Shown one piece after another: positions 3,242-24,695 of a DNA stretch of 25,970 nt. A program made the position numbers and the translations under genes. A model generated the notes under the pieces. That model was not told the DNA's origin. It did no database searches and saw only the letters and a list, made by a program, of their open reading frames with translations. Source of the DNA: Ceratorhiza oryzae-sativae (taxonomy: Eukaryota; Basidiomycota; Agaricomycetes; Cantharellales; Ceratobasidiaceae); contig JARWMV010000186.1 in the NCBI GenBank assembly GCA_030998015.1, positions 1 through 25,970 of the forward strand. Direction: 5' to 3'. Each line of letters begins with the position of its first letter. Position 1 is the stretch's first letter.

Positions 3242-3329
3242 TGTTACAGGTTAGGGTACACTTGAATATCTAGAGCTTAAGCAAATGTAGATATGTTAGT
3301 ATACACTAATCGTACTCAATACTTCTTAG
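3242..3329 (-). repeat. Truncated LTR fragment, 1.3-kb family, inverted
   Basis: This segment begins TGTTACAGGTTAGGGT. It is the reverse complement of the last ~88 bases of the solo LTRs ending at 14820 and 16902, including the CTAGATATTC and TAGTGTATACTAA blocks. It therefore represents the 3' end of that LTR family in minus orientation. It is cut at the first base of the Ty3 LTR. The missing ~1.2 kb does not reappear beyond the other end of the Ty3 element. Confidence 0.8.
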
Positions 3330-4005
3330 TGTCGTGACCCTCTGGAGGCTCCCTTGTGGAGCACTTAAGTAGTGGCTGCGTTGACGGTTTGGTGCTATGC
3401 GGTATGTATTGAGTGTTCTAGTTACAGTGTTTGCTATGGTCTATGGTGGTTGACGAGATAAAGCAAGCTGAGGTGTCCAGTCTTGCTTTATCCTCCTTAT
3501 ATACCTGTGGCTGCGGTGGCTGCGGACGTATTATCTAAGCACACTCCGCAGTAGGTGTAGGTTATGTATAGTACTATGGGTTAGGTAATTGTTTGTCTTA
3601 AGTTTGTGTGGCTCCGAATCTTATAGAGCCGCGCGAGGTCCGAGGGTCATGTGACCTTTTGGACTTAAGCACCCGGCGCTTAATCGCTGAATAAGCGCCG
3701 AGGTCACGTGACAACTCGCTCCTCGCTCCAGGTAACATGGGAGAGAAACGCTGGAGCGAGTTCAGGGTAACCACCGGCGCTTAATCTTTAGCTAAGCGCC
3801 GAGATCACGTGACAACTCGCTCCTCGCTCCAGGTAACATGGGAGAGAAACGCTGGAGCAAGTTCAGGGTAACCACCGGCGCTTAATCATTAGGTAAGCGC
3901 CGAGATCACGTGACCTTGTTTATGGTTTGTTCCGCTTCAGGAAAAATGCCATAAATCTGTACAATATTCGGTTGTTAGGTTATGTCTGCTAGGCGGGTCA
4001 TAACA
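3330..4005 (-). repeat. 3' LTR of the Rep-carrying Ty3 element (676 bp)
   Basis: It starts TGTCGTGACCC and ends GGGTCATAACA on the plus strand, so the TG/CA ends hold in either reading. It is nearly identical to 9376-10157; the differences I see are mostly C/T or G/A transitions (for example gcggta/gcagta, ggtgtcc/ggcatcc). It holds two complete 101-bp tandem units and a partial third, against three complete and a partial fourth in the other LTR. Confidence 0.92.
3675..3915. repeat. 101-bp tandem hairpin units in the 3' LTR
   Basis: Units begin at 3675, 3776 and 3877 (the last partial). Each has a palindrome GGCGCTTA...TAAGCGCC with a short variable spacer. A CACGTG (E-box) inside TCACGTGA follows, then an inverted repeat AACTCGCTCC...CTGGAGCGAGTT. 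The spacers differ (cgctga, tttagc, cattag) while the arms are preserved. One arm base is changed in unit 2 (gagcaag for gagcgag). Confidence 0.9.
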
Positions 4006-4020
4006 TTATCCCCCCCTTTG
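4006..4020 (-). promoter_or_regulatory. Polypurine tract
   Basis: On the minus strand CAAAGGGGGGGATAA sits directly against the first base of the 3' LTR. Position and composition match the plus-strand primer site of LTR retrotransposons. This also fixes the element orientation independently of the open frames. Confidence 0.8.
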
Positions 4021-4076
4021 GACATGTCTTGGGGGATCTCGAGGCATGTTTCTTTTTCTGGGTTCTAAAAGTTTCT

Positions 4077-4208
4077 AAAAGGTATCTCATATATCGAGGA
4101 GGTTAAGGGCGCTGGACTCAAACCAACGACCTTCTGTTCGATGTGTAATTGATTAGCTAGGAGATGATGAGTCAGGCTAGACCCCTTAACCTCTACGCTA
4201 CATGAGAT
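4077..4208 (-). ncRNA. tRNA-like foldback with pol III box motifs
   Basis: On the minus strand ATCTCAT (4208-4202) pairs exactly with ATGAGAT (4090-4084). Further in, GAGGTTAAGGG pairs exactly with CCCTTAACCTC (4193-4183 and 4109-4099). The bases between these stems also pair partly, giving a stem of more than 20 bp. An A-box-like TAGCGTAGAGG (4200-4190) and a B-box-like GGTTTGAGTCC (4124-4114, within a plausible T-arm) are correctly ordered, and TTTT follows at 4080-4077. It is not a normal tRNA: 17 extra bases separate the T-arm from the outer stem, and no anticodon arm is convincing. It lies between Rep and the polypurine tract. Alternatives are a tRNA-derived relic or a hairpin RNA. Confidence 0.4.
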
Positions 4209-4303
4209 TACTTTCTCCTTGCTTATTTCCTTGTTTAAGCTTACTTCTCGACACATGGTCTGTGAATAAAACAGCTTATACAAAGATAAATTATTTTTAT
4301 TTT

Positions 4304-5620
4304 TTAAGGAAAAATAAAAAATGGCTTCCCTCCTGAGTATACCCAGTCTACGTTTTTGGATACCCATAAGTCCCCTTCTTCCCCCTCTATGTCCGTCCAA
4401 CACTTCATTATGGCTGACCGGCTATTCCCCAGGATCACCGTCGGCCGTACCTTCATTGACTTCACATGAGCATATCTGCCTGTGAAGTCTGCTTCGTACT
4501 GGCTCAGGGCTTTGAGCGAGTACTTCCTGTTTGACTGGACCATGTCATCCAGGATCCAGATGTCGGCGTCCTCCGACAGATTCCCCACGTTCCAGACGTT
4601 GCACATCCGGCTATGGGAGCCCTTGGATCGCGCATATGCCGTCTTCCCAGTTCCTGTTTCACCTTCGATCACCAGGATGCGATGGCGCACGCCCCTCCCT
4701 CTCTTCTCAGACTCTTCCGCAAACCATCGGTCCGCCCTGTCGATGTGCGCCTGGTCTTCTGGGACTTCCAACTCCACCGGGATTGCAGGCATGCATCCCC
4801 GGTCCTCCTTATACGTGTACTCAGCATATGCTCGTACCGAGTTCCACGTCGTCACCATCTGGAGGGGGCGCAGGCGCTTGAATGCCTGGTAGTATTCTTT
4901 TTTTGTCGCTGAGGCAACAATCTCCGCCCCGTCCTCCAGGTCCGCCTCCGCCCTTGACCTTTTCCTGCCCTTTCCCTTCACCAGGATTTCCTCTAACCTT
5001 TCCAAGGTCAGGTCCCCCGCCATCAGCTCCTCTACCTCCTCGCCGTTAGCTCCGACATCCTTCCAGAGGTAGTTGAAAGCCTCCCTTGCAGGGTTGCCTC
5101 CTGGTCCGTCCTTGAGGTCCTTCGGCAGGATGTTGGGGTGTTGCCCCTCGAAGTCCCAGAACCGGGTGTTCTGGGTGTTCCAGCCGCCCTTCCGCTCCTG
5201 ACTGATGGAGAGGGCGTGGACATGGAGGGGCCGGGCCGGGTCGTAGTTCGGTTCCTCGGGGTTGTGGCGTTCCACCACCGCCAAAGTCGCCCAATGATTT
5301 GGCCGTTGGCGGCAGAACGCCTCGTATCGGGCGACGAGCCCACTTGAGGGCTGATCGCGTAGCTTCGACCAGGTCAGCAGCACCGCCCTGGTCTGGACGC
5401 GGAACCGGTTTCGGTCGGCTCTTCGGACCCTCGATCCGTCGGCGTAGGCCGCATAGAAGCGGGTGAGGGGGCTCGGCTTGATACCGAGGGCGCTGGCGAT
5501 GGCGACGCCGACCTCCGCCCTTCGCTTGATCCGCTTGGCTGGGGTGTTGCCGCGTTCGATCCATTTCCGCTTAGCATCGTTTACAGTTTTAGAGGTATTT
5601 GGGGACTGGGAAGAGAGCAT
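4304..5620 (-). CDS. rep: CRESS-DNA replication initiator (Rep), full length
   Basis: A single 438-codon frame has every landmark of a rolling-circle Rep fused to a superfamily 3 helicase. These are motif I VLLTWSK (80-86), motif II LHVHALS with the HxH metal ligands (133, 135), a GRS-like stretch FWDFEGQHPNI (154-164), and motif III FNYLWK with the nicking Tyr184 and Lys187. Then come Walker A GETGTGKT (320-327), Walker B IWILDD (354-359) and motif C VILGNS with Asn399. The HPNI signature points to the geminivirus/genomovirus side of the CRESS Reps. In that family the protein nicks the origin, stays covalently bound through the Tyr, and unwinds DNA. It is longer than usual (about 300-370) because of a basic N-terminal extension of ~75 residues and a charged linker (190-240) rich in KGKGRKR. 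No stop or frameshift breaks it. CpG is abundant, unlike the old repeats nearby. The family call is secure; activity is not shown. Confidence 0.93.
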   Translation of the reverse strand: MLSSQSPNTSKTVNDAKRKWIERGNTPAKRIKRRAEVGVAIASALGIKPSPLTRFYAAYADGSRVRRADRNRFRVQTRAVLLTWSKLRDQPSSGLVARYEAFCRQRPNHWATLAVVERHNPEEPNYDPARPLHVHALSISQERKGGWNTQNTRFWDFEGQHPNILPKDLKDGPGGNPAREAFNYLWKDVGANGEEVEELMAGDLTLERLEEILVKGKGRKRSRAEADLEDGAEIVASATKKEYYQAFKRLRPLQMVTTWNSVRAYAEYTYKEDRGCMPAIPVELEVPEDQAHIDRADRWFAEESEKRGRGVRHRILVIEGETGTGKTAYARSKGSHSRMCNVWNVGNLSEDADIWILDDMVQSNRKYSLKALSQYEADFTGRYAHVKSMKVRPTVILGNSRSAIMKCWTDIEGEEGDLWVSKNVDWVYSGGKPFFIFP

Positions 5621-5654
5621 GAGAGTGTGGGTTATCTCGGGTCTTGTGCTTGTC

Positions 5655-5661
5655 TATATAA
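5655..5661 (-). promoter_or_regulatory. TATA box upstream of rep
   Basis: The minus strand reads TTATATA about 35 bases before the rep ATG. This fits a core promoter with a very short leader. TCACATGAC motifs upstream at about 5683 and 5714 resemble the CATGTGA/CACGTGA elements repeated further into the same intergenic region. Confidence 0.5.
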
Positions 5662-5823
5662 GCTGCAAGGTCCGTTTTAATTGTCACATGACTCCGTCTT
5701 GCATTTGTTGTGATCACATGACCTTATTTTGGTGATGACGCATCTCCGAGGGGTGCCCTCCCATCCGTTCCTCCGCGTCGGCCTTGATCCTCGCTACGCT
5801 CGGGGCCTCCGCTCCCCCACTTC

Positions 5824-5862
5824 GGTCGGTGCCCCCTCTCCGACCCCTCCGGTAGTTAGGGG
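5824..5862. other. Two small hairpins in the rep intergenic region
   Basis: GGTCGG (5824-5829) pairs with CCGACC (5840-5845) around a 10-nt pyrimidine loop. CCCCT (5844-5848) pairs with AGGGG (5858-5862) around a loop of exactly nine bases, CCGGTAGTT on the plus strand. They overlap by two bases, so they are alternative folds. A stem with a 9-nt loop in the large intergenic region is where CRESS genomes hold their nicking site. However, the loop does not match the usual TAATATTAC-type nonanucleotide, so this is only a positional candidate. Confidence 0.3.
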
Positions 5863-5874
5863 ATAGCGTATATT

Positions 5875-5996
5875 CATGTGACCAGGCTGGGTCATGTGAT
5901 TCCTGTGCTTTGTTGTTTGTTTTCTGGCAGGTGGTCACGTGACTAGGCTAGGTCATGTGATTCCCGTGCTTTGTTGTTTGTTTTCTGGCAGATGGT
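5875..5996. repeat. Two 61-bp direct repeats with CATGTGA-type motifs
   Basis: Unit 1 (5875-5935) and unit 2 (5936-5996) differ at only a few positions and both contain GGTCATGTGATTCC and GTGCTTTGTTGTTTG. Each starts with a CACGTGA/CATGTGA hexamer-type motif, and a third start (CACATGT) follows at 5997. They lie between the divergent rep and the plus-strand gene, where CRESS replicons carry Rep-binding iterons. They could equally be transcription-factor sites. Confidence 0.75.
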
Positions 5997-6118
5997 CACA
6001 TGTCTGTTGGTGTCACCTGACCAGACCTTGTTTTGATGTTTGTGCACGTTATTGTGTTGCACCGTGATTTTTTAATGTTCGTGGTTTTGTTGTTTTCCTT
6101 CCTCATCCCGTCTTTACT

Positions 6119-6660
6119 ATGCGTGTTATTTCCCTTAACTACAATCCCCTTGACTGCACCTGCTGGTCTCTCCCTGAGGGGGAGTACTGCGCCTACTGTG
6201 ATGCCGTGTGCGACGCCTCCCTTGAAGACTTCTATCGAGGTGTTGGGGACTGGTTCTTCTGTGGGGTGCCCGGTATGTGTGTTCGTTCTTCGTCGTTCTC
6301 ACGTAGCTAACTTGTTCTGTAGAAGAGCGCATCCTCCTTGATGGTCGGGCCCATGAGGCCACCCTTGAGCGTGTCTGGGCGCTCGTTGATCAGGACTGCC
6401 GGTTATTTGAGGAGCGGCAACACCAGGCTGCCCTTGCTGAGTTTTTTGAGGAGGGCTCGGCCCCTTTGTTCGACGAGGCCTCACCCTTTGCGGCTTCTGG
6501 TTCTGGATGTTTCCAGAACTATATGGCCGATCTCCCAGGGGGGGAGGCCCCCTGGCTGTTGCCTGAGAACCAGGCCGGTGGTTCTGCGGCCCGTACTACT
6601 AGGAAGGATAAGAAGGCAAAAAAACCCTATACCCGGCCCCTCAAGGGCAAGAAAAAATAG
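6119..6660 (+). CDS. Spliced orphan gene divergent from rep, 163 aa
   Basis: Exon 1 is 6119-6272 and exon 2 is 6323-6660, joined over a 50-nt intron with GTATGT donor, CTAAC branch sequence (6307-6311) and TGTAG acceptor. The join keeps one frame to the TAG at 6658-6660. The predicted protein has a Cys-rich N-terminus (CTCW, then CAYCDAVCD, within residues 10-35). A Glu/Leu-rich helical middle (LERVWALVDQDCRLFEERQ) follows, then an acidic stretch, and a strongly basic tail rich in Lys and Arg. I recognise no family. Its place opposite rep is where an ambisense CRESS genome carries its capsid gene, and the basic tail would suit nucleic-acid binding. But it is short for a jelly-roll capsid and its basic region is at the wrong end. 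It runs toward the convergent minus-strand frames ending at 6885. Confidence 0.65.
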
Positions 6661-6884
6661 AAAACATTTTTGAAATGTATTATTATATGATTATGAAAAT
6701 TATTCTTAAGACATTCCAAAAACGTGTGATAGGCCCGATAATCACAGGGGCTCCGGGGCCAGCAGGGGCACTTCCTCCAGGGCGCCTGCCAGCTCATCCT
6801 CCCATTTGGCCCAATCCGTTTGGACTCCCTCTTGGGCCGGGTCCGGGGTTGGTTCCTTTATCGTTACTCTCGGCTCCTCCTCCT

Positions 6885-7271
6885 TCACCACCAGGGACTC
6901 CAGGCTTGCGTGAGGCTCGACATATCTGTGTCGTAACCGTGCAGGTTTGGGCGTACCTTCACCCAGTTACGGAAGTCGGCCAAGTTTGCTTCCTTCAACC
7001 TGATGGCAGTAAACATTTCATCAGTGGTAGTGGCCTCAAGCAGTCCCACATACGGTGCCGCCGGTGCCAGCTTCCACTGCTCCAACAGTGCCTTTGCCCG
7101 GCGCTCCACCTCCCAGTCCCCTCCGTCTGCCATTTGGCCTGTGGCCCTCCTCTGTTGCCTTGCTGCCTTGGTCACCACGTCGACTGTTGGTCCCACGATA
7201 TTGTCGACGACATACATCGGTGTTCTTAACAAGGCGTTTCTCGTCGTTGTTGGCTTCGGCTTCCATGCCAT
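6885..7271 (-). CDS. Unrecognised 128-aa cargo frame (ORF4)
   Basis: The ATG is at 7271-7269 and the stop at 6887-6885. The product has a basic N-terminus (MAWKPKPTTTRNALL), a middle with VDVVTKAARQQRRATG, and a helical C-terminal half (WEVERRAKALLEQWKLAPA, then IRLKEANLADFRNWVK). No membrane segment or known motif is visible. Its first 46 bases overlap the end of the upstream minus-strand frame in another register. It may be a separate gene, the second half of one protein joined by a frameshift, or a second exon. Base composition matches rep and the other cargo genes. Confidence 0.5.
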   Translation of the reverse strand: MAWKPKPTTTRNALLRTPMYVVDNIVGPTVDVVTKAARQQRRATGQMADGGDWEVERRAKALLEQWKLAPAAPYVGLLEATTTDEMFTAIRLKEANLADFRNWVKVRPNLHGYDTDMSSLTQAWSPWW

Positions 7272-7561
7272 GTCAGGACCCCTAACCTGGGATCCAGGTA
7301 CTTGTCATCGTCAATCCAGTTCCTTTCATCCCTTAACTTCTTTGGGATGTACACTAGGTTAGCCCCTGGCAACAGTCGTTCGGCGTACCTCTGGGCGTCT
7401 TCCACACTGGAGCAGTACATCCCTGGTTTAGGACGATTTTCCCTGCCAGGGTAGGGTGCTGGCCGCCTGGTGGTGGGTGGCTGCCGAAGTGGGGCCACCT
7501 GATTTTCGGCAAGTGGGGTGTAACGGTTGGGATGTGCGATTGGGTGAGTGACGAAAGGCAT
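7226..7561 (-). CDS. Unrecognised 111-aa cargo frame (ORF3)
   Basis: The ATG is at 7561-7559. The N-terminal half is Pro/Arg-rich and looks disordered (RQPPTTRRPAPYPGRENRP). The C-terminal half is more ordered (VEDAQRYAERLLPGANLVYIPKKL). The last ~15 residues, after DPRLGVLTW, read through DNA that also encodes the start of ORF4. A GT..AG pair beginning near 7277 could splice out about 55 bases and join the two, but no good branch sequence supports it. Function unknown. It follows the gag-integrase remnant by 87 bases, so it is the first cargo gene downstream of the retroviral part. Confidence 0.5.
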   Translation of the reverse strand: MPFVTHPIAHPNRYTPLAENQVAPLRQPPTTRRPAPYPGRENRPKPGMYCSSVEDAQRYAERLLPGANLVYIPKKLRDERNWIDDDKYLDPRLGVLTWHGSRSQQRRETPC

Positions 7562-7648
7562 GCTTTTGGGGTTTTGCAGGTGTGTTGTGGTGCAAGTGAG
7601 GTAGTAGAGCGGGCTCTGGCCTTTCTTGGGTATCCTGGATGGCTCCTT

Positions 7649-9254
7649 TTAAAGCTTTCCAGATCCTCGTTTGGTTCTCTTTGGCCTGCCTTTCGAGTCA
7701 CCTGAGTGCTGACTTGTCTTGACTGGCATTGGTGCGTCTGGTAAGCGCCTTTGCAAGTCATTTAGAACCTCTTTCATGTCAGCAAACTTGCTGGCACGTT
7801 CCATTGTGTCTTCTATTGGGTCGTAGCCCTTCCATCTGATTTGGTAAAACAGCTCGCCATTCCGCCATTCATAATTTGCAATGTGGTCCACCTCGTATTC
7901 CTCCTCTCCTTTTTCCGTTATGATTGGTGGTGGCTTGGCCTGCCTTCTTTGGAAGTCTTTATCTTCTGTGAATGGCGAGAGGAGATTTACATGGAATACA
8001 TTGTGTACACGTATAGTTTTAGGTAGGTCCAGGCGATATGCGTGGGATGAGATCTTTTCTGTGATTTCAAAGGGCCCCCCTTTTCGGTTGTCCAGTTTCT
8101 TGGAGGGTCTCTTGGACGAGAGGTTTGTTAGGAGCAGCCAAACCTTGTCTCCTACCTTGAATTCCCTCCCTTTCTTTTCCATTTGTTGGTGTAATTCCAT
8201 TGAGGCTCTTGCCTCATCCCATACCTTTTCCATTTGATTACGCATGTTGTCTGCGGCGGGTGCCTCAGATGGTTCTTCTCCCTCTCGGACAACCCATCTT
8301 GGGTTTTTTCCATATACTGTTTCAAATGGGGTTTGTCCTGTTGTAGCATTTACATGGTTGTTATGGCAGAATTCGGCAATGGGTAACCATTTTACCCAAT
8401 CATCTTGTCTATAATTGCAGAAGGTTCTTAAGAACCCTTCTACCCATTGATTTGTCCTTTCCCTTGGCCTTCCTGCTTCAGTTGTTTTCCGGAGCTCATT
8501 TCCTAGATCGGTTACCCGTTGTTCTAGTGCGATTAGGATCTCCCCTGTGTTTTCGGTTTTCTTCTCTAAGCTTTCGAGCTTTCGCTCTTGCATTCCCAGT
8601 ACCCGGTTTATTTCCATGGAGATGTCCTTTAATTCTTTTATCAGGTTCCCCATTTCTGCTTTTAGGTCGTCCTGGTTCTTTGCCACATAGAGGACATTTT
8701 TGTTGGATGTTTCCATAGACCTTACCATCCAGTCCACGTTTCCTTCTTGTCGGGTTAGTGATATTTGACACTGATTTACCTGTGATTGCCTTTTCTAGTT
8801 CCCTATGATTATTGTCTCTAAGTTCCTTGAGCCCCGCCCTGATGGCCGTGGCAATGGTGTGAATAGGGTTGGCAGTGGCTATGGTTCCGGGACCTGGCTG
8901 GGGTTGTGTCCTTGCCTCTTCCGCCAAGGCCATGCCTTGTTCGTATATGGTTCGGGTCATATCTTCTACCTCATCCCTTTCTGGATTTGAGATATCTTCT
9001 GGGTCTGGATTTATCAGGTGAATTGGCGGTTGAGGGCTGCGGAGTGGTATTCCCCCTATTTCCCCTCCCAGGATGGGGGCCCGAGTGGGGTTGGGTTGAG
9101 CCACTGGTCGTGGGTTTTGTGGCAACCCCCCTGGCATTCCTTGGAGGGTCTCGTCTGGGTTACCTTCCGCCTCTGGGGAAGCAATGGGTTTGGGTGATTG
9201 TGGCCTACTGTTTGCCACCCTGCTTTGAGATCGAGTTTGTGGTCTCTGTGACAT
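7649..9254 (-). pseudogene. Gag-integrase-chromodomain remnant of a Ty3 polyprotein
   Basis: Gag starts at ATG 9254 with a Pro-rich disordered N-terminus (MSQRPQTRSQSR). Near 8745 the frame shifts by one base and continues through a coiled-coil-like stretch (MEINRVLGMQERKLESLEKK). Around GRPRERTNQW the sequence jumps in frame into the end of the integrase core (WLPIAEFCHNN, TGQTPFETVYG), then the integrase C-terminal domain (FKVGDKVWLL, GPFEITEKI, VFHVNLLSPF). A chromodomain follows (EYEVDHIANYEWRNG, YQIRWKGYDP) and a basic tail to the stop at 7649. Everything between gag and the integrase C-terminus is gone: CCHC, protease, RT, RNase H and most of the catalytic core. The usual TWEP of the chromodomain reads TMER, losing an aromatic-cage Trp. 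Chromodomains of this clade target heterochromatin; here that function is doubtful. Confidence 0.88.
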
Positions 9255-9375
9255 AGTTTCTTTGTGTTCTCTTATGTATCACAGGAGTTAGCTGGTTTTC
9301 TCGTGTACTCAGCCCTTAGTATCTGTGCAGTATACTTATGTTCGCCACTAGTTAAGTTAAGAGCTTGCTTTATAA

Positions 9376-10157
9376 TGTCGTGACCCTCTGGAGGCTCCCT
9401 TGTGGAGCACTTAAGTAGTGGCTGCGTTGACGGTTTGGTGCTATGCAGTATGTATTGAGTGTTCTAGTTACAGTGTTTGCTATGGTCTATGGTGGTTGAC
9501 GAGATAAAGCAAGCTGAGGCATCCAGTCTTGCTTTATCCTCCTTATATATACCTGTGGCTGCGGTGGCTGCAGACGTATTATCTAAGCACACTCCGCAGT
9601 AGGTGTAGGTCATGTACAGTACTATGGGTTAGGTAATTGTTTGTCTTAAGTTTGTGCGGCTCCGAATCTTATAGAGCCGCACGAGGTCCGAGGGTCATGT
9701 GACCTTTGGACTTAAGCACCTGGCGCTTAATCGCTGAATAAGCGCCGAGGTCACGTGACAACTCGCTCCTCGCTCCAGGTAACATGGGAGAGAAACGCTG
9801 GAGCGAGTTCAGGGTAACCACCGGCGCTTAATCGTTATGTATGTAAGCGCCGAGATCACGTGACAACTCGCTCCTCGCTCCAGGTAACATGGGAGAGAAA
9901 CGCTGGAGCGAGTTCAGGGTAACCACCGGCGCTTAATCGTTAGGTAAGCGCCGAGATCACGTGACAACTCGCTCCTCGCTCCAGGTAACATGGGAGAGAA
10001 ACGCTGGAGCGAGTTCAGGGTAACCACCGGCGCTTAATCGTTAGGTAAGCGCCAAGATTACGTGATCCTGTTTATGGTTTGTTCCGCTTCGGGAAAAATG
10101 CCATAAATCTGTACAATATTCGGTTGTTAGGTTATGTCTGCTAGGCGGGTCATAACA
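9376..10157 (-). repeat. 5' LTR of the Rep-carrying Ty3 element (782 bp)
   Basis: Same ends and order as the 676-bp LTR. It is longer by 106 bp because it has one more tandem unit and a 4-bp expansion (gttatgtatgtaagc) in its second unit. It directly abuts AATGG, which is unrelated to the sequence before the other LTR. Confidence 0.92.
9722..10065. repeat. Tandem hairpin units in the 5' LTR (three plus partial)
   Basis: Units begin at 9722, 9823, 9928 and 10029, with periods of 101, 105 and 101 bp; the last is partial. Each complete unit carries GGCGCTTA...TAAGCGCC, CACGTG and the CTCGCTCC/GGAGCGAG inverted repeat. In the partial unit CACGTG has decayed to TACGTG and GCGCCGAG to GCGCCAAG. 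Confidence 0.9.
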
Positions 10158-10504
10158 AATGGGGCCAACTGATGTGATCAGTCAGCCACTGTTGGTGCAT
10201 TAGTTATGTGGCTAGAGGGATTAGTAACTGCCAATCACCTGCATACTGATCCACCATTCATGCTGACTCACTCCCTCCACTTTGCTTACCGATCTGCCAT
10301 TCATGCTCACTGATACCAAATCATGTATGCTTATGTGATCATGTACATAGAGGAGTATAAATACAGCCATGAAGCTGCTCTGGGTCCCCCAGATTGCTTC
10401 ATCTTGACATCCCCCCCACTATACTGGGGGGCAGGCTGGTGAAACCAGCCTGTCCCCATCACCTCTACTACACACACACACACACCCAGGCAAGCAGTGG
10501 GTTG
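10158..10504. other. Repeat-rich spacer with two hairpins and (AC)n
   Basis: No gene is visible. It contains a C6/G6 hairpin with loop actatact (10412-10431), immediately followed by a 9-bp hairpin CAGGCTGGT/ACCAGCCTG with a 3-nt loop (10432-10452). A CA microsatellite lies at 10470-10486. The microsatellite lies just before the point where copia RT similarity begins on the minus strand. Confidence 0.5.
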
Positions 10505-11885
10505 TGACATCTTGAGGTGCATATAAAAGGCTTGTGCTGCCTGTTTGAGACTGTAAATCACTTTATTGAGCTTTCAAATGGATTGCAGGCCTTCAACAAA
10601 GCCTGGAGGTTACTCCATATAAGTCTCCTTGTCAAGATCCCCATGCAAAAAAGTGGTTTTAACATTGATTTGAAGAAGTCCAAGATTGAGAGCAGCTACA
10701 ATGCTTAAAAGCATCTGTAAGGAATCAGCAACAGCAACAGGTGATGAAATTTCAACAAAATTGACTCCAGGGTGTTGAGAAAAGCCCATCACAACTAATT
10801 GAGCCTTGTAGTGCATGATTTTGCCATCAGGACCATGCTTATAGTCAAACACCCACTCTGCATTTAACAACATTTTTTGTTGATAGGTTGGCCCACAAGC
10901 ATCCAGACTTTGTGCTGCTCAATTGATTTGAGCTGTTCTGTCATCACCTAAAGCCATAGATTTGCATCTGGGCAACACATAGCTTCCTCAAACATTTGAG
11001 GTGGCAATTCCATCATCACAGTAAGTGCCTCTTCATTCTCTTGTCTGTCTGTATGTGCTAAAACACCCACTTGCACTCCATGTCATACTGGTGCTCTTTG
11101 TTCACATAGATTGACACAGAGGTAGTGGGTCTTGCTGTAAAACTGCAATCTCTTGCTCTTCAGGCTCCAAGTCTGAGCTATTGGAAGGTATGATTTCTGG
11201 TTCATTGGGTATGTGCACAGGTTCTGACAATTCAAATGGTTCATCAGATAATTTTGGTGAATGAGTCTTGATTTGGATTGGCAGTAATTCATCCAATTTA
11301 CCCTCCTCATCATCTGTTGGACTCTCATCATGGTCCTTAATAACCACACACTGCCAATTGTCTAGCACTTTGTCAAAGACCATGTCACATGATGTGATTA
11401 TACAACTGATACTGCACTGAGCAAGCATGTGTGCCTTCCTATTAGGGGCAAATCCAAGTTATATGCACTTGATTGAGCATGCTTGGAGTTTCATGTGTGT
11501 ATTGTCTGGCACACAGGCCCAGGCCTTGCATCCAAAGATAAGTAATCCAGACACATTTGGAATCTTGCCACTAAATGCTTTGCTTGGTGTTTGGCCATCT
11601 AGGTGTTTCTTTGGTGTTATGTTCCAGAGGTGAGTTGCATGTAGGATTGTGTAACCCCAATACTTCTCAGGTAAATGTGTGTCAAATTGCATTGTGTGTT
11701 GACAATTGTTTAGGGTGTGTATTGCTCATTCAGCTACACCATTGCTTGCTGATGAATCAGCCTTGGTCTTCTGGTGCTGAATCCCCTCAGATTGCAGGAA
11801 AGCCTCAAAGGCATTTGAACCATACTTGACACTGCCATCTGTTTGTAAATGTTTAATTTGTGTTGTAAGCCACCCTCAATTTCCC
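10505..11885 (-). pseudogene. Copia-type pol relic (integrase plus RT start)
   Basis: Reading from 11885 downward, the integrase core is recognisable: LQTDGSVKYG with the second catalytic Asp, then SSASNGVAE with the Glu and a stop right after it. EKYWGYTILHATHLWNITP and FGCKAWACVPD follow in the integrase C-terminal region. An acidic linker lies at about 11430-11100. The reverse transcriptase start is at 10873-10510 (EWVFDYKHGPDGK, VVMGFSQ, INVKTTFLHGDL, then VIYSLKQAAQAFY). The Lys in NVKTTFLHG replaces the usual first RT Asp. Several stops and frame changes are present, no protease or gag is seen, and the RT is cut off before its YxDD motif. It is a dead fragment in CpG-poor DNA. Confidence 0.85.
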
Positions 11886-12035
11886 TCCCCTCTTTTCCCT
11901 TGTCACAACCTGGTCTCTAGGCCCTTACATGTACTCTTGAAGTACAGTTAAGGAGGATAATACCTCTGTGTATAGTCCTAATCACTGGCTTGGGTTCACC
12001 ACTCAGCGTTGCCCAGTTGTCTGCTAAGGCCTCTG

Positions 12036-12184
12036 TGTTGAGACCCCTCTGTCTGCCTGTCTCTATTGATTCCTTAAGTAGTGGCTATGTTGTCAGTGGT
12101 AATGTGCAGTGTATATTGATAGTATTTATGTAGTATGTACAGGTGATCCCTGTGGTTGACAAGATAAAGCAAGCTGGTGTCCAC
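12036..12184 (+). repeat. Decayed Ty3-family LTR, first part (interrupted)
   Basis: It starts TGTTGAGACCCCTCTG and keeps the blocks CTTAAGTAGTGGCT, GTGGTTGAC and GATAAAGCAAGCTG in the order of the plus-strand reading of 3330-4005. It is split after TCCAC (12180-12184) by the LTR inserted at 12185; the second part resumes at 12905. About 150 bp upstream (11886-12035) shows nothing I recognise. Confidence 0.8.
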
Positions 12185-12904
12185 TGTTATGACCTGCACA
12201 GACAACCATAACATGACAAGAGAATTAGCATATAGTTTATAGCATTTTCTCCTAAGTTGAACAAGCTATAAACATAGTCATGTGACCTCAGTGCTTATCC
12301 TGGTGCTTACAGTGGTTATCTAACTTGCTCCTACAATTCTCTCCATTGTAACTTGGAGCAAGGAGTGAGTTGTCATGTGATCCTGGTGCTTACTGTGGTT
12401 ATCTAACTTGCTCCTGCAATTCTCTCCATTGTAACTTGGAGCAAGGAGCAAGTTGTCACATGACCCTGGCACTTCACACATCACATGATCTTGGTGCTTA
12501 TGGTGGTTACCTAACTCACTCCTGCAATTCTCACCATTGTAACTTGGAGTGAGGAGTGAGTTATCATGTGACCTCAGCACTTAAATCATGTGACCCTTGG
12601 ACCTCATGTGGCTCTATAAGATTTGGAGCTGCAACAACCCTAAGAGCAACTTACTTAATACTTGTTTACACCACACATGACATATAACATACTGCAGACT
12701 GTGGAACAGTCTGACTCATACCTTGAGGGGTATATAACTCATTGAAAGCAAGACTGTGGACCCCAGCTTGCTTTATCTTGTCAACCACAGGGACCACCTG
12801 TACATACTACATAAATACTATCAATATACACTGCAAATTACCACCGACAACATAGCCACTAGTTAAGGAATCAATAGAGACAAGGAGACAGAGGGGTCTT
12901 GACA
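12185..12904 (-). repeat. Solo LTR nested inside another LTR of the same family
   Basis: It begins TGTTATGACCTGC and ends GGGGTCTTGACA, the reverse orientation of the Ty3 LTR. It is flanked by a perfect TCCAC duplication (12180-12184 and 12905-12909) and contains no internal element sequence, so it is a solo LTR left by LTR-LTR recombination. It has three decayed tandem units (ACTTGCTCC/GGAGCAAG arms at about 12325, 12408 and 12510). CpG has been turned into TpG or CpA almost throughout. Confidence 0.88.
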
Positions 12905-13255
12905 TCCACAGGCTTGCTTTCAATGAGTTATATACCCCTCAAGGTATGAGTCAGACTGTTCCACAGTCTGCAGTATGTTATAGGTCATGTGTGGTGTAAA
13001 CAAGTATTAAGTAAGTTGCTCTTAGGGTTGTTGTGGCTCCAAATCTTATAGAGCTGCATGAGGTCCTGGGGTCACATGACTCCTTGCTCCTTGCTCCAAG
13101 TTACAATGGAGAGAATTGCAGGAGCAAGTTAGATAACCATGGTAAGCACTGAGGCTATGTGACCCTGTTTATAGCTTGTTCAACTTTGGAGAAAATGCTA
13201 TAGACTATAGATTAATTCCCTTGTTATGTTATGGCCATCTGTGCAGCTCATAAAA
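12905..13255 (+). repeat. Decayed Ty3-family LTR, second part
   Basis: It continues the LTR interrupted at 12184: GGCTTGCTTT, TGTGGCTCCAAATCTTATAG, CCTTGCTCCAAGTTACA, GACCCTGTTTATAGCTTGTT, and an end CTCATAAAA corresponding to GGTCATAACA. Only one tandem unit with arms is clear. Outer flanks CTCTG and ACAAG do not match. Sequence 13256-13510 holds no gene; its last ~35 bases are a quasi-palindrome (GGTCAAGTTC/GAACTTGATC). Confidence 0.8.
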
Positions 13256-13510
13256 ACAAGCAAGGAAGGAGGATGAGGAACTAGAAGGCTCAAAGGTAGC
13301 CTTATATACTTGAGAGAAAGACTGTTCAAGTCATTACATAGACTACAGTCATACTATAAGTGACTAGTTACAGTAAGTCATAGCATGGTCACTTTACTTG
13401 CTTGCTGACTTGTCTTATACATGTCAAGACCTAACCAGAATCTGAAAGATATTTGAACTGAGCTCACAACTGGAGGTCAAGTTCTTGGGGAACTCCCTTT
13501 GAACTTGATC

Positions 13511-14820
13511 TGTTATGGATCACTAACATTTTCTATTATTTTAGTCTGCTCTGCCAACCTCAAGCAATGCCTCTGTAATTAAATTGTGAAATACTTGAAT
13601 TTGTATGCGCTCTGAATTGTACTATTTTCTGTTCCATTAAATAGTACAAAATTCCCGCTCTCCAAAGCATATTTTATTAAGATTTTACGATAAGATCTCA
13701 GAGAGATATAGAGGTTGCGATATTTCCTCTTATCAGGAGATATTGATTACAACATCGCACCGCTCATATCTCGGCAACCGCTTACGCTATCAAAGCGATC
13801 TTATGCTCTATCGATAGCTAATCTTTGGCAGTATCTGCTGCCCGAAGATCGTCGCGATCCACCAGATCCTCGCGCCGGAATGGCCCGAAGATCATTAGAA
13901 TCTTACTGGACCATCAATCAAGATCTAATGACTCCAGTGAGTCAGGAGAGCTTCCCAAATTGATCCAGAAGCTTCTCTGACTCACTTTATGACTCACTGA
14001 GATGTAGCCTCTGTTCATTACATGTATATACTATGATAATATGATCTACAAGCCAATAGCAGGTCTCAGATGCATCAATGCCTTTGATCCACACCCTGTC
14101 TTTACTCTCATATCCTATACTGGGCTAGGGTGTACCCCAAGTATAGCAGTACCCTCTTTTGATGATTGCACTGGCATGCATGTATCTAATTGGCTCTGGA
14201 ATGCCCTCCTCAGGGTATAAAAGGACCTCCTCTGAGGCCCTTCCAGACCACCTCCCTCCTCTACTCAACCCAGACTGGTTATTGGTTTCCTTTTTCTCTT
14301 TCTATTTCTCTTGTCTGTGTGTGATTTCTTATATAACTAGTACTGAGGAATAAAGTACCATATTAGTTATATGCTGTCTGATTCATTGTATCTTATATAC
14401 AGAGATATATAAGGATACAATATTGCCTGATTGAGCATGACATTAAGTACCAGCTATTAGAGGAAATCTAAGTACCTGTAGCTGAGGAAGTACACGCATT
14501 AGGCAGCCCTCCGTCTATCCTATAAGCTATCACTTAAAGTCTAGTATTAAGATTAGTATCAGTTAGTCCAAGCGACTAGGGCTGAACTACATTTAAGATA
14601 TCTAAGGGAACCTGACCATAGTAGTCTTGCTCTTTATACCTATAAATTAGTCAGTTTACACTGTGAAAGATTAAGACTACCTTGAGTGTTACTTGATTGC
14701 ATTGCAACTACTTTGAGCCTTCTTACTCTAGTCTAAGAAGTATTGAGTACAATTAGTGTATACTAACATATCTACATTTGCTTAAGCTCTAGATATTCAA
14801 GTATACCCTGACCTGTAACA
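13511..14820 (+). repeat. Solo LTR A, 1.3-kb family, TSD TGATC
   Basis: It starts TGTTATGGATCAC and ends CTGACCTGTAACA. A perfect TGATC duplication flanks it (13506-13510 and 14821-14825), and no internal element sequence adjoins either end. A TATAAAAG box (14216) lies 5' of a pyrimidine-rich stretch, and AATAAA (14349-14354) follows. This defines a U3-R-U5 order read on the plus strand. A block at about 13700-13880 keeps many CpGs (for example CGTCGCGATCC, CGCGCCGG). The open frame at 13715-13963 lies wholly in this non-coding U3 and is not a gene. Confidence 0.92.
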
Positions 14821-15099
14821 TGATCCCTGTTATATACCATTCATTGTACAGCTGAGAATACATAGTCACAAACTGCAATTGGTCATTTGATATCAAATAT
14901 GATGTGTCAGCATCTGACAAATCAACCAGAAAGTTCCATGAGTCACCTGACCCAGAAACTATAGATAATAAGGAATATTAAAATACTAGAAATCATCATT
15001 AATTGCCATGACACCTTCTGGCTTGTGACAATACATGATTCACTAACTACATGACTCCTATTGCAATAAAGAGCATCAAGCTGAATAAGGTGGCCAGGT

Positions 15100-15594
15100 T
15101 GACTCCATCTCACCAGTACTAGTGGGAAATGGTGATGTCTTATCTTGGAGGACATGGATCACACCTGACAATTGAGCTCTTGATGTATGCTGCCAAAGCT
15201 TGGACTGCCACAGTTGAGCTTCCTAGCCATATCAACAGGCATCCTGCAAACAGTTGACATTGGGCTTTTTCACCCCTTGAAGCACATCTATCAAGCAGAA
15301 GTGGACAGATGGACATGAATTGGCTGAAAGCTCACTAAAGACCTATTTGTGACCTACAGGTTTCCTGCATCCAAAACTGAAGACCACCTTACTTTGAAGA
15401 TTCACAAGTGTGCTCCATGAAGCACAATAGGAGGCCTACACAGAGAAGATCATCAAAAGTGCATTGAATGTGACCAGTATTACTCCCCTAGATGCATGGC
15501 ATACAAGCATAGTGAAGAGGTGCTGAGAGGAGCTGCAATCAAAACTGACTCTGCACAAGCAGAGCATCCAAATTTTTTGGATGCTGAATTTGGA
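15100..15594 (+). pseudogene. Second pogo/Fot1-type transposase relic (C-terminal part)
   Basis: Translated fragments read HGSHLTIELLMYAAKA (about 15150-15200, with the Asp before HGSH mutated to Gly), then after one frame change ILQTVDIGLFHPLKHIYQ and AEVDRWT. KLTKDLFV follows across two stops (about 15245-15350). This is the second and third catalytic region of DDE_1 transposases. The remainder up to 15590 is open but not recognisable. It is a different, more decayed copy than the one at 1015-3240. It lies between solo LTRs A and B, so this is old target DNA rather than the inside of an LTR element. Nothing is recognisable in 14826-15100. Confidence 0.7.
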
Positions 15595-15605
15595 TGTTAC
15601 AGGTT

Positions 15606-16902
15606 TTTTATGGATCACTAACATTTTCTATTATTTTAGTCTGCTTTGCCAACCTCAAGCGATGCCTCTGTAATTTTCTTGAAATTAAATGAATTTGTAT
15701 GCATCTGAATTTGTACTATTTGTGTTCCATTAAATAGTACAAAATCTCCTCTTTCCAACACATATTTTATCATGATTTTATCTTAAGAACTCAGAGAGAT
15801 ATAGAGGTTGTGATATTTCCTCTTATCAGGAGATATTGATTACAACATCACGCTGCTCATATCTTGGCAACCGCTTACACTATCAAAGCGATCTTATGCT
15901 CTATCAATAGCTAATCTTCAGCAGTATCTGCTGCCTGAAGATCGTCCCAATCCACCAGATCCTTGTGCTGGAATGGCCTGAAGATCATTAGAATCTTACT
16001 GGACCATCAATCAAGATCTAATGACTCCAGTGAGTCAGGAGAGCCTTCTGAATTGATCCAGAAGCTTCTCTGACTCACTTTATGACTCACTGAGATGTAG
16101 CCTCTGTTCATTACATGTATATACTATGATAATATGATCTACAAGCCAATAGCAGGTCTCAGATGCATCAATGCCTTCGATCCACACCCTGTCTTTACTC
16201 TCATATCCTATACTGGGCTAGGGTGTACCTCAAGTATAGCAGTACCCTCTTTTGATGATCACACTGGCATGTGTGCATCTATTTGGCTCTGGAATGCCCT
16301 CCTCAGGGTATAAAAGGACCTCCTCTGAGGCCCTTCCAGACCACCCTCCTCTACTCAACCCAGACTGGTTATTGGTTTCTTTTCTCTTTCTATTTCTCTT
16401 GTCTGTGTGTGATTTCATATATAACTAGTTCTGAGGAATAATGTACCATATTAGTTATATACTGTCTGATTCATTGTATCTTATATACAGAGTTATATAA
16501 GGATACAATATTGCCTGATTGAGTGTGACATTAAGTACCAGCTATTAGAGGAAATCTAAGTACCTGTAGCTGAGGAAGTACACACATTAGGCAGCCCACC
16601 ATCTATCCTATAAGCTATCACTTAAGTTTAGTATTAAGATTAGTATCAGTTAGTCCAAGTGACCTGAACTACATTTAAGATATCTAAGGGAACCTGACCA
16701 TAGTAGTCTTGGTCTTTATACCTATAAATTAGTCAGTTTACACTGTGAAAGATTAAGACTACCTTGAGTGTTACTTGATTGCATTGCAACTACTTTGAGC
16801 CTTCTTTCTCTAGTCTAAGAAGTATTGAGTATGATTAGTGTATACTAACATATCTACATTTTCTTAAGCTCTAGATATTCAAGTGTACCCTGACCTGTAA
16901 CA
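15606..16902 (+). repeat. Solo LTR B, 1.3-kb family, TSD AGGTT
   Basis: It is homologous to solo LTR A over its whole length. A perfect AGGTT duplication flanks it (15601-15605 and 16903-16907). Its first bases read TTTTATGGATCAC instead of TGTTATGGATCAC, so the terminal TG is mutated. TATAAAA is kept (16309-16315), but the AATAAA of copy A reads AATAAT. Most CpGs present in copy A at 13700-13880 are TpG or CpA here. Confidence 0.9.
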
Positions 16903-16907
16903 AGGTT

Positions 16908-18821
16908 TATGTAGGCAATGTATCCATATTGTGATGCAAAATACTTAAAATTGGGTGTTTTGCCCATTTTCTAAATGCATTTGTTGGGACCAGGACAATC
17001 CCAACAACATGAATACCAGCCTACTAAAGCTTTTGTTGAAGATGCCACAGTCCACAGGTCACCTAAAATCTAAAAGTGGACAAAACATCTATTTTACATG
17101 GAATTGTCCAAAAAGTTTGGACATTCCCAATCTGCAGAGTGAGCTGATACAAATCCAAAAACGATCTGGTTATCAGGTGCCAAAAAGCACTGACACAATG
17201 CCTTGACCTTGTAAACAATTCCCATGCAAGTGCTTAGCAGTTGCAACAAGGGCCCAGGGAGGTTTTATCAATGATTGAGGATACCTTGGCTCGGTTTGCA
17301 ATGCTAGGATTAGAGCTTGTGTCTGCAAAGGTGGCAGCCCTTGATTGCCAGCATTGTAAAACAACTGGTAGCAAACGAGTCAGACAGGCTATCATTTGGG
17401 TTCAAGCTGAAATAGAGGCATTGGGGAGTGGAAAGGTGAGGCCAAGGAATCTCGCAGTGCAAAAAGGGGTAGAGGACGAGAACGAAGCTAGAATAAGGTT
17501 TGCAGTCGCAGTCGTGCCACTGGTAGAGGAGCTCGTCTCCTTGGAATGAGGCAACAGACTTCGCTGATGAAAACGACATCAATATAAGGGATTTGTTTAC
17601 TATATGCGTTTACGACTCACCTGTGGAAGTAGGGGCTGCGTATGATGTCTGATGCTTCGTTGCAATCCTCAAGGTAGAGAGGAACGTGGCGGCAGTGCAA
17701 TCAGCGTTTACCGGTTTGGTTGCGACCTAAGTTTCACGCCGGCATCAAGCGGTCTCAATATCATATGGGATGACTTCTCTGCGACAGCACATCTAGCATG
17801 CACAAGAGTCATATAGACTCGCTTGATGTTCAAAGCAGGGTCGTTGAAGGAAGTTATTAAACATCCCACAATTTTTTGATGGCTGAATTGATTCAACAAG
17901 CACATTTGCCAAAATCACTATGGCAGAACCAGCACAAGCTAATGGGATAAATTTGTATGTATAGGGCGTTTGGTTGGCTCTATACACGTGCCAAAATTCA
18001 AGCCCCGTAAGAGACTCAAACCGTAGAACATGAGCCTGGTCCGCTTCCCTAATCCGGTATGGCAGATAGAACGCTCTGCAAGTGCCGACGACGTCCTGAC
18101 CTTCTCATATTCTCGTCAAGAAGCCGCGCTTGAACGGGAGTGTTTCTCTTTGTCCGGCACATTTCGGACGACGAAAGATCTCCAGACCGTCTCCATTGCA
18201 TACCCGTTTGAGCTCGGCACTCCACCCAACCCAAGTCTTCGCTCCTCTAGAACCCAAGCCTACACCCAGAAGGTATAGCTTGAGACTCCGTAGGGCATAA
18301 TCAAATAACACCGGCTCTAGGACGGTTCGGAGCGATAAGCTCCGCCCACTCACGAGCCATCTTATTAACTTCTACTCTAAAGTGTAGTAGACAAAAATAA
18401 AATGCCGCAACCCAGGATTTACCCGGTCAGTCAAACAAACCGGGAAAGTAGCAGCAGCACATCGGACAGCTCCACCAAGACACAATTGACAAGCGGGGAT
18501 CGACGTCTATCCCCGTCTCCCATTTAGCAAAACAGCCATGTCGACAAAACAGGTGGTTGCGGGATTTTGAAACAGACGCCACAGTGTGCGAAGAGCCACC
18601 ATGACAAATGGATACCAAACCGGAACTTTTCGGAATTAGATTACAATAGGAAACAAGATGAACGGCGCCACCCGGCGGTACTCCATACTGCCACGCGTCT
18701 TCAGATGCGGGCAAAAATAACACGGAAAACATGCGGCTCTATTACTACTAAGCGATGGTACACATTTCTACGATATCTTCACAAGCCGTTCCACCAGAGC
18801 GAAAAAGGAGATGATGTGATT
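16908..18821. other. No recognised gene; repeat-to-genic transition
   Basis: No family is recognisable on either strand. Short open frames exist at 16955-17206 and 17241-17549 (plus) and at 17793-17987 and 18427-18732 (minus). None shows motifs, intron signals or composition that persuade me. The first 500 bases remain CpG-poor like the repeat block. CpG becomes frequent from about 17435 onward. The last few hundred bases should include the 3' untranslated region of the GMC gene. Confidence 0.4.
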
Positions 18822-21891
<3,070 letters not shown>

Positions 21892-24106: not shown

Positions 24107-24695
24107 ACATTCTCAAGGGGTTTCGATTAAAAGTTGTATATGTTTATAGATACTATAGCTCAGGACTAGTTTTCCATCACGTTCGCTTTCGCTATTTTCT
24201 TTTTGTACATTTCTTCTAGACCAAAATGCACTGCGTTTGTGGGTGCCTTGAGGGAACCACCCAGTTGTGGATTTGGCACAAATTGCGTCCTTGGTCGACC
24301 CTGCAATCCACATCACGCGCCACCACGTTGGCTCACCCTGAGAAGCCACCACGTTTGCGGGTCTATAGCACTTCTGATCTCACGCTAAGCCTGGTTAGTT
24401 ACCTCGACCGGTCATGGCGGGTCCTCGTCGGTCTTGCGTGTTGGTTGTCCGAGTTCTTTCCCGTCACATGGAAATTTGCATATTCTCTGCTAGAATGGTT
24501 CTCTATTGCCGGTTGTTCTGATCTAGCGGCGACTGGTTTGTCTGATCGTTTAGCTAAGCGTCCAGTCCCCCCGTCGGCTGTATATCAATGCACAGGCACT
24601 GTACTGTGAAATCAGGCCTCCCCACTCTCATCCCCCCCGACTCGGGCTTTAGCTATCAGGCAGTTGATCTCTGTACCTGCTTACTCTAACACAAA
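24107..24695 (+). other. Intergenic region between the two tandem paralogues
   Basis: It holds the 3' region of copy 1 and the promoter of copy 2. I see no coding sequence with motifs and no repeat. Open frames at 24203-24388 and 24226-24609 have no family resemblance. The leader just before ATG 24696 is pyrimidine-rich (ctgtacctgcttactctaac). Confidence 0.45.

What the first reader, a model, noticed from the sequence alone, without database searches (positions are those of the whole stretch)
3330..10157. LTR retrotransposon carrying an intact CRESS-DNA Rep gene
An apparently uninterrupted geminivirus/genomovirus-type Rep lies inside a gypsy-type element, between the chromodomain remnant and the polypurine tract, in the same orientation as gag. 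Endogenous CRESS Reps in fungal genomes are known; one framed by two near-identical LTRs and so copyable by reverse transcription is, as far as I know, not a described arrangement. If other loci show the same structure, the Rep has been amplified as retroelement cargo.
Basis: partly seen in the sequence, partly recalled or inferred. Interest (0 to 1): 0.93.

Follow-up and report, generated by a model that had tools for sequence, protein, structure and literature searches.

The report
Retrotransposon family with viral replication gene
A family of copy-and-paste genetic elements in a fungus (likely a Ceratobasidium relative) carries a gene with the motifs of a geminivirus-type DNA-replication protein in 97 of 98 copies examined, and mutation patterns show that selection has kept this gene, so the element likely uses a viral replication enzyme in its own life cycle.

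Summary
The window element (LTRs 3330-4005 and 9376-10157, read on the - strand) is an internally deleted copy of a Ty3/gypsy chromodomain family. The genome has 156 internal/3'-LTR junctions; of 98 examined, 97 have Rep DNA in place. Of 16 copies with both flanks read, 11 have matching 5-bp target duplications, all different. The window copy does not; its contig shares its right flank with three others, one of which (C3) does. Full-length copies have gag, protease, RT, RNase H, integrase, chromodomain, ORF3, an antisense gene with a 50-bp intron (ORF2), then Rep. Rep is not passive cargo: dN/dS is 0.05-0.14 between subfamilies, and the HUH, GRS and SF3 motifs persist in 29-30 of 30 copies. 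ORF2 is also constrained. Relatives of both genes occur in other Ceratobasidium strains, with consecutive gene tags in strain AG-Ba. My searches found no LTR element with a CRESS Rep in print; the nearest case is a truffle TIR transposon with a Rep ORF. Best reading: an LTR retrotransposon that adopted a gemini/genomovirus-type Rep as accessory enzyme. That Rep nicks or copies the element's extrachromosomal DNA, perhaps at LTR stem-loops, is inferred and untested.

The parts
9376..10157 (-). 5' LTR (782 bp), three copies of the ~101-bp repeat
9362..9373 (-). Predicted primer binding site, 12-nt exact complement of LTR position 643, 36 nt after the TATA box
   Evidence: 2 of 1000 LTR shuffles gave 12 nt or more; transcript start not known
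8463..9254 (-). 5' part of gag
   Evidence: ORF 8496-9254; continues as gag in the full-length copies
8453..8462 (-). Internal deletion joint; gag 3' part, PR, RT, RNase H and most of integrase are missing, 10-bp overlap at the joint
7649..8462 (-). Integrase C-terminal part, SH3_Tf2-1 and chromodomain
   Evidence: PF24626 E 4.7e-20, PF00385 E 1.1e-5
6885..7561 (-). ORF3, unknown function, interrupted in this copy, open in the C32 copy
   Evidence: no Pfam family
6119..6272 (+). ORF2 exon 1, antisense to the element
6273..6322 (+). ORF2 intron, 50 bp, GT..AG in 27 of 27 complete copies
   Evidence: splicing predicted, no RNA data
6323..6660 (+). ORF2 exon 2, basic C-terminus
5621..6118 (.). 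Divergent intergenic region of Rep and ORF2, likely two promoters; 5 KTCAYRTGA sites
4304..5620 (-). Rep, 438 aa, HUH endonuclease and SF3 helicase motifs, GRS-type motif
4010..4019 (-). Polypurine tract
3330..4005 (-). 3' LTR (676 bp), two copies of the ~101-bp repeat
9966..10016 (-). LTR stem-loop 1, loop with TGTTAC; candidate Rep site (predicted)
9865..9915 (-). LTR stem-loop 2
9760..9810 (-). LTR stem-loop 3
3814..3864 (-). LTR stem-loop in the 3' LTR
3713..3763 (-). Second LTR stem-loop in the 3' LTR

Best explanation
This is one copy of a Ty3/gypsy LTR retrotransposon family in which a Rep gene with gemini/genomovirus-type motifs lies before the 3' LTR in 97 of 98 examined 3' ends and is under purifying selection, and Rep likely acts as an accessory nickase-helicase on the element's own DNA. 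Shown: the family inserts as a unit with 5-bp target duplications; Rep and the antisense, intron-bearing ORF2 diverge under strong constraint; the catalytic motifs are kept; relatives of both genes occur in other Ceratobasidium strains. Inferred: the element is transcribed from the LTR and self-primed in the manner of Tf1 (recalled), the ORF2 intron survives because it is antisense to the genomic RNA, and Rep and ORF2 are made from their own promoters. Predicted, not tested: Rep nicks LTR circles or cDNA at the stem-loops repeated in each LTR and so multiplies or processes extrachromosomal copies before integration.
For: Rep DNA at 97 of 98 examined 3' junctions, 71 by the Rep table and 26 of 27 by fetched DNA; junction after Rep at 30 of 30 Rep loci. 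Matching 5-bp duplications in 11 of 16 copies. Full-length copies with gag, PR, RT, RNase H and IN domains. Rep dN/dS 0.05-0.14 between the main subfamily and L015, L019, L026 at dS 0.45-0.88; true frame 0.06-0.12 against 1.0-4.8 in the four frames that do not share wobble sites. Motifs kept: HxH, YLWK, motif C and HPNI in 30 of 30, LLTW, Walker A and Walker B in 29 of 30. ORF2 dN/dS 0.11-0.21 for diverged pairs and GT..AG in 27 of 27, true frame 0.12-0.18. Consecutive Rep and ORF2 tags in AG-Ba for 3 of the 5 AG-Ba ORF2 representatives. LTR stem-loop fold z -4.29, TGTTAC in 81 of 86 loops.
Against: No evidence of Rep activity, expression or element circles. No NANTATTAC or TAATATTAT in the window element; the stem-loop is also in the related LTR at 12185-12904, with TGTAAC, and that family's Rep status is unknown. 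The GGCGCTTA hairpin is absent in L015, L019 and L026. The fetched full-length copies have interrupted frames, and 5 of 16 copies, the window's among them, lack matching flanks. Among the three divergent copies Rep dN/dS is 0.27-0.59. In 11 of 25 database relatives the motif I columns read CFPD instead of LTW. The LTR context in other species is unseen.
Confidence: 0.5

Rival explanations
1. Rep is kept for a regulatory or counter-defence role, such as binding the element's promoters, easing silencing or pushing the cell towards DNA synthesis (roles of plant geminivirus Reps, recalled), rather than for copying element DNA.
For: KTCAYRTGA sites cluster in both LTRs and the Rep/ORF2 intergenic region, 9 of the 10 in the element. 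CGA-to-TGA stops recur in copies, which suggests genome defence by C-to-T change. No viral origin motif was found.
Against: The HUH tyrosine motif, HxH, Walker A, Walker B and motif C are all kept in 29-30 of 30 copies, more than binding alone would need.
Confidence: 0.3
2. Rep and ORF2 are a separate CRESS-like replicon or transposon that lives inside the retroelement and moves by itself.
For: Rep and ORF2 diverge from one intergenic region, as in CRESS genomes. 25 of 96 Rep places had no junction in the capped list, and 24 of these were not checked.
Against: 30 of 30 fetched Rep loci join the 3' LTR at nearly constant distance; 97 of 98 examined junctions have Rep. No free relative in IMG/VR (two short peptide patterns).
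Confidence: 0.06
3. Rep is a passive passenger, a viral relic copied along with the element.
For: More than half of the scored Rep places have stops: 37 of 96 have none inside the match, by my count.
Against: dN/dS 0.05-0.14 between subfamilies with frame controls; relatives with motifs kept in other strains.
Confidence: 0.03
4. The LTR-Rep-LTR order is a misassembly.
For: The window copy lacks a duplication and its contig shares its right-hand flank with C3, C143 and C164.
Against: 11 copies on 11 contigs have matching, different duplications; distances from Rep to the junction are 233-307 bp at 71 places.
Confidence: 0.02

Closest known systems
Geminivirus-like TIR transposon of the truffle Tuber melanosporum (Liu et al. 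2011, PMC3198968; abstract and passages read)
   Same: A geminivirus-like Rep ORF spread in a fungal genome inside a mobile element, 42 Rep genes or remnants
   Different: That is a DNA transposon with 37-bp TIRs, transposase ORFs, an interrupted Rep and no obvious TSDs; this is an LTR retrotransposon with gag-pol, 5-bp TSDs and a Rep under purifying selection
LTR retrotransposons with additional ORFs between pol and the 3' LTR, such as Grande, RIRE2 and Retand (PMC7264820; passages and section 7 read)
   Same: Sense and antisense extra genes between pol and the 3' LTR in most copies of a family
   Different: The passages name no viral Rep among the extra ORFs and do not mention introns (0 occurrences); those are plant elements
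Reps of Geminiviridae and Genomoviridae (motif table in PMC8703526, passages read; GRS remarks in PMC7468197, passages read)
   Same: Motif I, HxH, GRS-type motif, YxxK, Walker A, Walker B and motif C in the same order
   Different: No sequence match at usual cut-offs; gene lies in a retroelement and no capsid gene was recognised beside it
Tf1/Tf2-type chromodomain retrotransposons (recalled, plus Pfam SH3_Tf2-1)
   Same: Integrase C-terminal SH3 and chromodomain; PBS complementary to the LTR, as in self-priming
   Different: Three extra genes, one a Rep; self-priming not tested

Membership tests
Ty3/gypsy LTR retrotransposon | Two LTRs with TG..CA ends, PPT before the 3' LTR | tested here: met
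Ty3/gypsy LTR retrotransposon | gag, then PR-RT-RNaseH-IN in this order, with chromodomain | tested here: met
   Met in full-length copies C57, C32, C39, with interrupted frames; the window copy keeps only the ends
Ty3/gypsy LTR retrotransposon | Target site duplication of 5 bp | tested here: met
   Met for the family in 11 of 16 copies; not met for the window copy
Ty3/gypsy LTR retrotransposon | PBS matching a tRNA or the element's own 5' RNA end | tested here: inconclusive
   12-nt complement in the LTR 36 nt after the TATA box; RNA start not known; tRNA match not tested
CRESS-DNA Rep, gemini/genomovirus type | HUH endonuclease motifs I, II, III and SF3 helicase motifs | tested here: met
   29-30 of 30 genomic copies; in 25 database relatives HxH in 20, YLWK in 21, Walker A GKT in 24
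CRESS-DNA Rep, gemini/genomovirus type | GRS motif between motifs II and III | tested here: met
   FWDFEGQHPNI at 154-164; FWD and HPNI in 30 of 30 copies, compared by eye with PMC8703526
CRESS-DNA Rep, gemini/genomovirus type | Profile match to a Rep family above its cut-off | tested here: inconclusive
   Gemini_AL1_M E 0.15 for the window Rep, below the cut-off; 9 of 25 relatives, best E 0.001
CRESS-DNA Rep, gemini/genomovirus type | Rep fold | not testable with these tools
   Structure prediction not accepted
CRESS-DNA virus or replicon | Circular genome with nonanucleotide stem-loop origin | tested here: not met
   No NANTATTAC or TAATATTAT in the window element
CRESS-DNA virus or replicon | Capsid gene | tested here: inconclusive
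   ORF2 and ORF3 match no Pfam family at usual cut-offs; ORF2 has no convincing PDB match

The most novel reading that the evidence does not exclude
An LTR retrotransposon that has added a rolling-circle DNA replication stage: reverse-transcribed circles are nicked and multiplied by an adopted gemini/genomovirus-type Rep at origins built into the LTR repeats, so one element combines retroviral and ssDNA-virus replication.
Probability: 0.25. Interest if true: 0.96.

Novelty: new variant of a known kind. Interest (0 to 1): 0.88.

Why it matters
Reps of ssDNA viruses are known in fungal genomes as scattered genes or relics and in one TIR transposon. Here a Rep with its catalytic motifs in place is a regular, selected gene of a high-copy LTR retrotransposon, with relatives of the gene in several Ceratobasidium strains. 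It joins two replication machineries in one element and makes it testable whether a retroelement can use rolling-circle replication. It offers an explanation for many 'hypothetical proteins' in Ceratobasidium annotations. The antisense, intron-bearing partner gene shows how a spliced gene could survive passage through an RNA copy.

Tried and rejected
Reading AG-Ba protein P0050 (Rep followed by integrase) as the same arrangement in another species: rejected, since its integrase part is 22% identical to this family's and it looks like another element nested in Rep. Reading the four deletion copies (C186, C3, C143, C164) as four transpositions of the deleted form: rejected, they share long flanks. 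A CRESS nonanucleotide or a significant fold in the Rep/ORF2 intergenic region: none (fold z 0.11 and 0.10; motif scan of the window element). The GGCGCTTA hairpin as origin: weakened, 0 in L015, L019 and L026. Free relatives in IMG/VR: none confirmed among 19 stretches that matched two short peptide patterns. PHROG and PDB searches gave nothing useful.

Literature: ten searches with terms for Rep, CRESS or geminivirus, LTR, gypsy or retrotransposon, fungi, Ceratobasidium or Rhizoctonia. No title or abstract start in these listings, and no passage that I read, describes an LTR element with a CRESS Rep. The library holds open-licence papers only.

Not done because the genome tools did not complete: the 3' side of 24 Rep places without a listed junction, 2 of the 29 junctions without a listed Rep, whether the divergent LTR family at 12185-12904 carries Rep, and a genome search with PF08283. 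56 of the 156 junctions were not listed by the tool and were not examined.
Full report
What is in the window. The element spans 3330-10157 and reads on the - strand: 5' LTR 9376-10157, predicted PBS 9362-9373, the 5' part of gag, a deletion joint at 8453-8462, the integrase C-terminal part with SH3_Tf2-1 (E 4.7e-20) and chromodomain (E 1.1e-5), ORF3, the antisense gene ORF2 (6119-6660, intron 6273-6322), Rep (4304-5620), PPT 4010-4019 and 3' LTR 3330-4005. The LTRs differ at 18 of 675 aligned columns, 16 of them transitions, and by one repeat unit; the LTR pairs of C57, C32 and C39 differ at 15 of 778, 13 of 677 and 14 of 577. Full-length copies show what was lost here: the rest of gag, protease, RT, RNase H and most of the integrase. 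Their frames are interrupted in places.

Copies in the genome. The window is contig C186 of a 48.8-Mb genome in 253 contigs. All named relatives of Rep are from Ceratobasidium, so the host is likely a relative; it is not named to me. A Rep search scored 96 of 367 candidates (98 matches); by my count 37 of the 96 have no stop inside the match. The PPT-LTR junction occurs 156 times and the LTR-PBS junction 142 times, each with 0 in the backwards control; only 100 places of each were listed, best matches first. Of the 100 listed PPT junctions, 71 have a Rep from the capped table 233-307 bp upstream. Of the other 29 I fetched 27: 26 encode Rep C-terminal sequence in place (in L069 only the last 21 residues, cut off by another repeat), and one (L059) has another repeat instead; 2 were not fetched. 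So 97 of 98 examined have Rep DNA, and 58 of 156 were not examined. From the other side, 30 of 30 fetched Rep loci, the best-scoring ones, run into the junction. Fifty-three pairings of listed junctions lie 5.0-10.7 kb apart (one PBS is used twice), 34 of them 8.9-9.3 kb.

Insertion. Both flanks were read for 16 copies. Eleven have matching 5-bp duplications, all different and on 11 contigs: CCATT (C3), GTACC (C22), TATGC (C238), GGTTC (C250), CCTGA (C251), CACAT (C29), CTAAG (C237), ATCCT (C17), CACAA (C57), TGCTA (C32), CAGGG (C39). Five do not match: the window, C143, C164, C36 and C19. The window, C143 and C164 share their 5' flank with C3, 98-100% identical in the stretches searched and up to the ends of the three short contigs, and differ just beyond the 3' LTR. 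These may be haplotypes, duplications or assembly joins at a repeat. The window's own 3' joint is the weak point; the family evidence does not depend on it.

Rep. The window Rep has no PHROG or PDB match and no convincing Pfam match; a profile of 25 relatives has no PDB match either. The motif set is complete: LLTWS, HVH, FWDFEGQHPNI, YLWK, GETGTGKT, WILDD, ILGNS. For comparison, a published table gives one genomovirus Rep as LLTYPQ, NHLHA, GRS DVFDVDGRHPNIQSRL, AGYDYVIK, GDTLTGKTQWAR, IFDDL, YISN (PMC8703526, passages read), and another paper says that GRS motifs are needed for geminivirus replication, occur in genomoviruses and were not found in cruciviruses (PMC7468197, passages read). Gemini_AL1_M appears for 9 of 25 relatives, best E 0.001, and for the window Rep at E 0.15, which is weak. 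In 30 genomic copies HxH, YLWK, motif C and HPNI are present in 30; LLTW, Walker A and Walker B in 29. In the 25 database relatives, HxH is present in 20, YLWK in 21, and the motif I columns read CFPD in 11; I take the latter as broken or misannotated copies, an inference.

Selection. Pairwise Nei-Gojobori comparisons over codons 67-438 between the main subfamily and L015, L019 or L026 give dN/dS 0.05-0.14 at dS 0.45-0.88. Over codons 72-431 of four pairs the true frame gives 0.06-0.12; the antisense frame that shares wobble positions gives 0.14-0.23, as expected; the other four frames give 1.0-4.8. Among the three divergent copies the ratio is 0.27-0.59, and among close copies 0.10-0.51, which is noisier and includes decay after insertion. 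Pol (PR-RT-RH) gives 0.09-0.13 for three pairs and 0.38-0.70 for the three pairs with the broken L033 copy. In-frame TGA codons recur at four CGA codons, 98, 263, 298 and 331. Relatedness of copies and exchange between subfamilies limit the precision: in the C20 copy PR-RT-RH is 97.5% identical to C57 while Rep is 82% identical to the window.

ORF2 and ORF3. ORF2 lies antisense to the element, 163 aa after removal of a 50-bp intron. Of 30 loci, 27 hold it complete (L013, L020 and L028 do not), and 27 of 27 keep GT..AG; 15 of the 27 keep the window's frame to the same stop. dN/dS is 0.11-0.21 for L015, L024, L026, L029 and L030 against main copies; it is 0.28-0.72 for pairs with L021, 0.32-0.58 for L019 against main copies, and 0.17-0.29 for the diverged copies against L019. 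The true frame gives 0.12-0.18 in three control pairs, the wobble-sharing antisense frame 0.17-0.29 and the other frames 1.07-2.73. Eight relatives are all from Ceratobasidium, with five invariant cysteines. In AG-Ba, Rep and ORF2 bear consecutive locus tags in three cases: RhiLY_09190/09191, RhiJN_06805/06806, RhiLY_05231/05232; that these are neighbours is inferred from the tags. ORF3 is a further sense gene without a Pfam match; its dN/dS of 0.13-0.62 is less clear.

Age and spread. In a tree of 26 chosen Reps, 13 of this genome's (100/100), 5 of AG-Ba's (82/85), 2 from strains 395 and 428 (100/100) and 6 from metagenomes (98/98) each form one group. This fits old presence and separate amplification, but the LTR context outside this genome is unseen.

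Mechanism. Catalytic motifs that stay intact while the sequence diverges argue for catalysis. The candidate sites are stem-loops in the ~101-bp LTR repeats: a 146-nt stretch of the 3' LTR folds with z -4.29, and in L001-L036 81 of 86 such loops contain TGTTAC. I recall, from no call, that some genomoviruses use a TAATGTTAT-type nonanucleotide. In Magnaporthe oryzae, LTR elements form circles by end joining, autointegration and recombination (PMC9694575, passages read), so substrates are plausible. Against it: the stem-loop also occurs, with TGTAAC, in the related LTR at 12185-12904, whose Rep status I could not test; no viral nonanucleotide is present; nothing shows activity. A regulatory or counter-defence role is the main rival: 9 of the 10 KTCAYRTGA sites of the element lie in the LTRs and the intergenic region.

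Novelty. The nearest published case is the truffle TIR transposon with a Rep ORF (PMC3198968, abstract and passages read). Extra ORFs between pol and the 3' LTR are known in plants (PMC7264820, passages and section 7 read). I found no report of a CRESS Rep in an LTR retrotransposon in the ten searches named in Tried and rejected. I call it a new variant of a known kind, close to a new kind if the rolling-circle stage is real.

Noticed in passing
window 12036-13253: Copies of a related LTR (64-70% identical) in inverted arrangement, arms of 175, 152 and 118 nt; this LTR family is in high copy (193 matches in the genome).
   Followed up: partly
window 13510-14820 and 15608-16902: Two direct copies of another repeat about 2.1 kb apart; pieces of it flank or interrupt several Rep elements (window 3242-3329, L010, L013, L028, L059, L069).
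   Followed up: partly
window 10158-25970 and contigs C3, C143, C164: Four contigs share this stretch at 98-100% where searched; three of them end at the same point, which suggests haplotypes or an assembly branch.
   Followed up: partly
L003, L006, L007, L020-L026, L030 Rep frames: In-frame TGA recurs at the same CGA codons (98, 263, 298, 331), as C-to-T decay would give.
   Followed up: partly
Rep N-terminus, residues 1-65: Many copies match the window Rep only from about residue 49-74, with a 429-aa open frame; AG-Ba relatives also show two N-terminal versions.
   Followed up: no
L021, L024, L029, L030, Rep/ORF2 intergenic region: About 200 bp more than in the window, a second copy of the GGGGTGCCC..GGTAGTT block.
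   Followed up: no
L036 and L015 (contig C20): PR-RT-RH 97.5% identical to C57 but Rep 82% to the window: likely template exchange between subfamilies.
   Followed up: partly
window 9362-9373 and LTR position 643: PBS complements the LTR just after a TATA box, as in self-priming Tf1-type elements (recalled).
   Followed up: partly
L034 (contig C27) 5250-8054: A different gag-pol element (about 28-48% identical in pol) lies inside or beside this copy.
   Followed up: no
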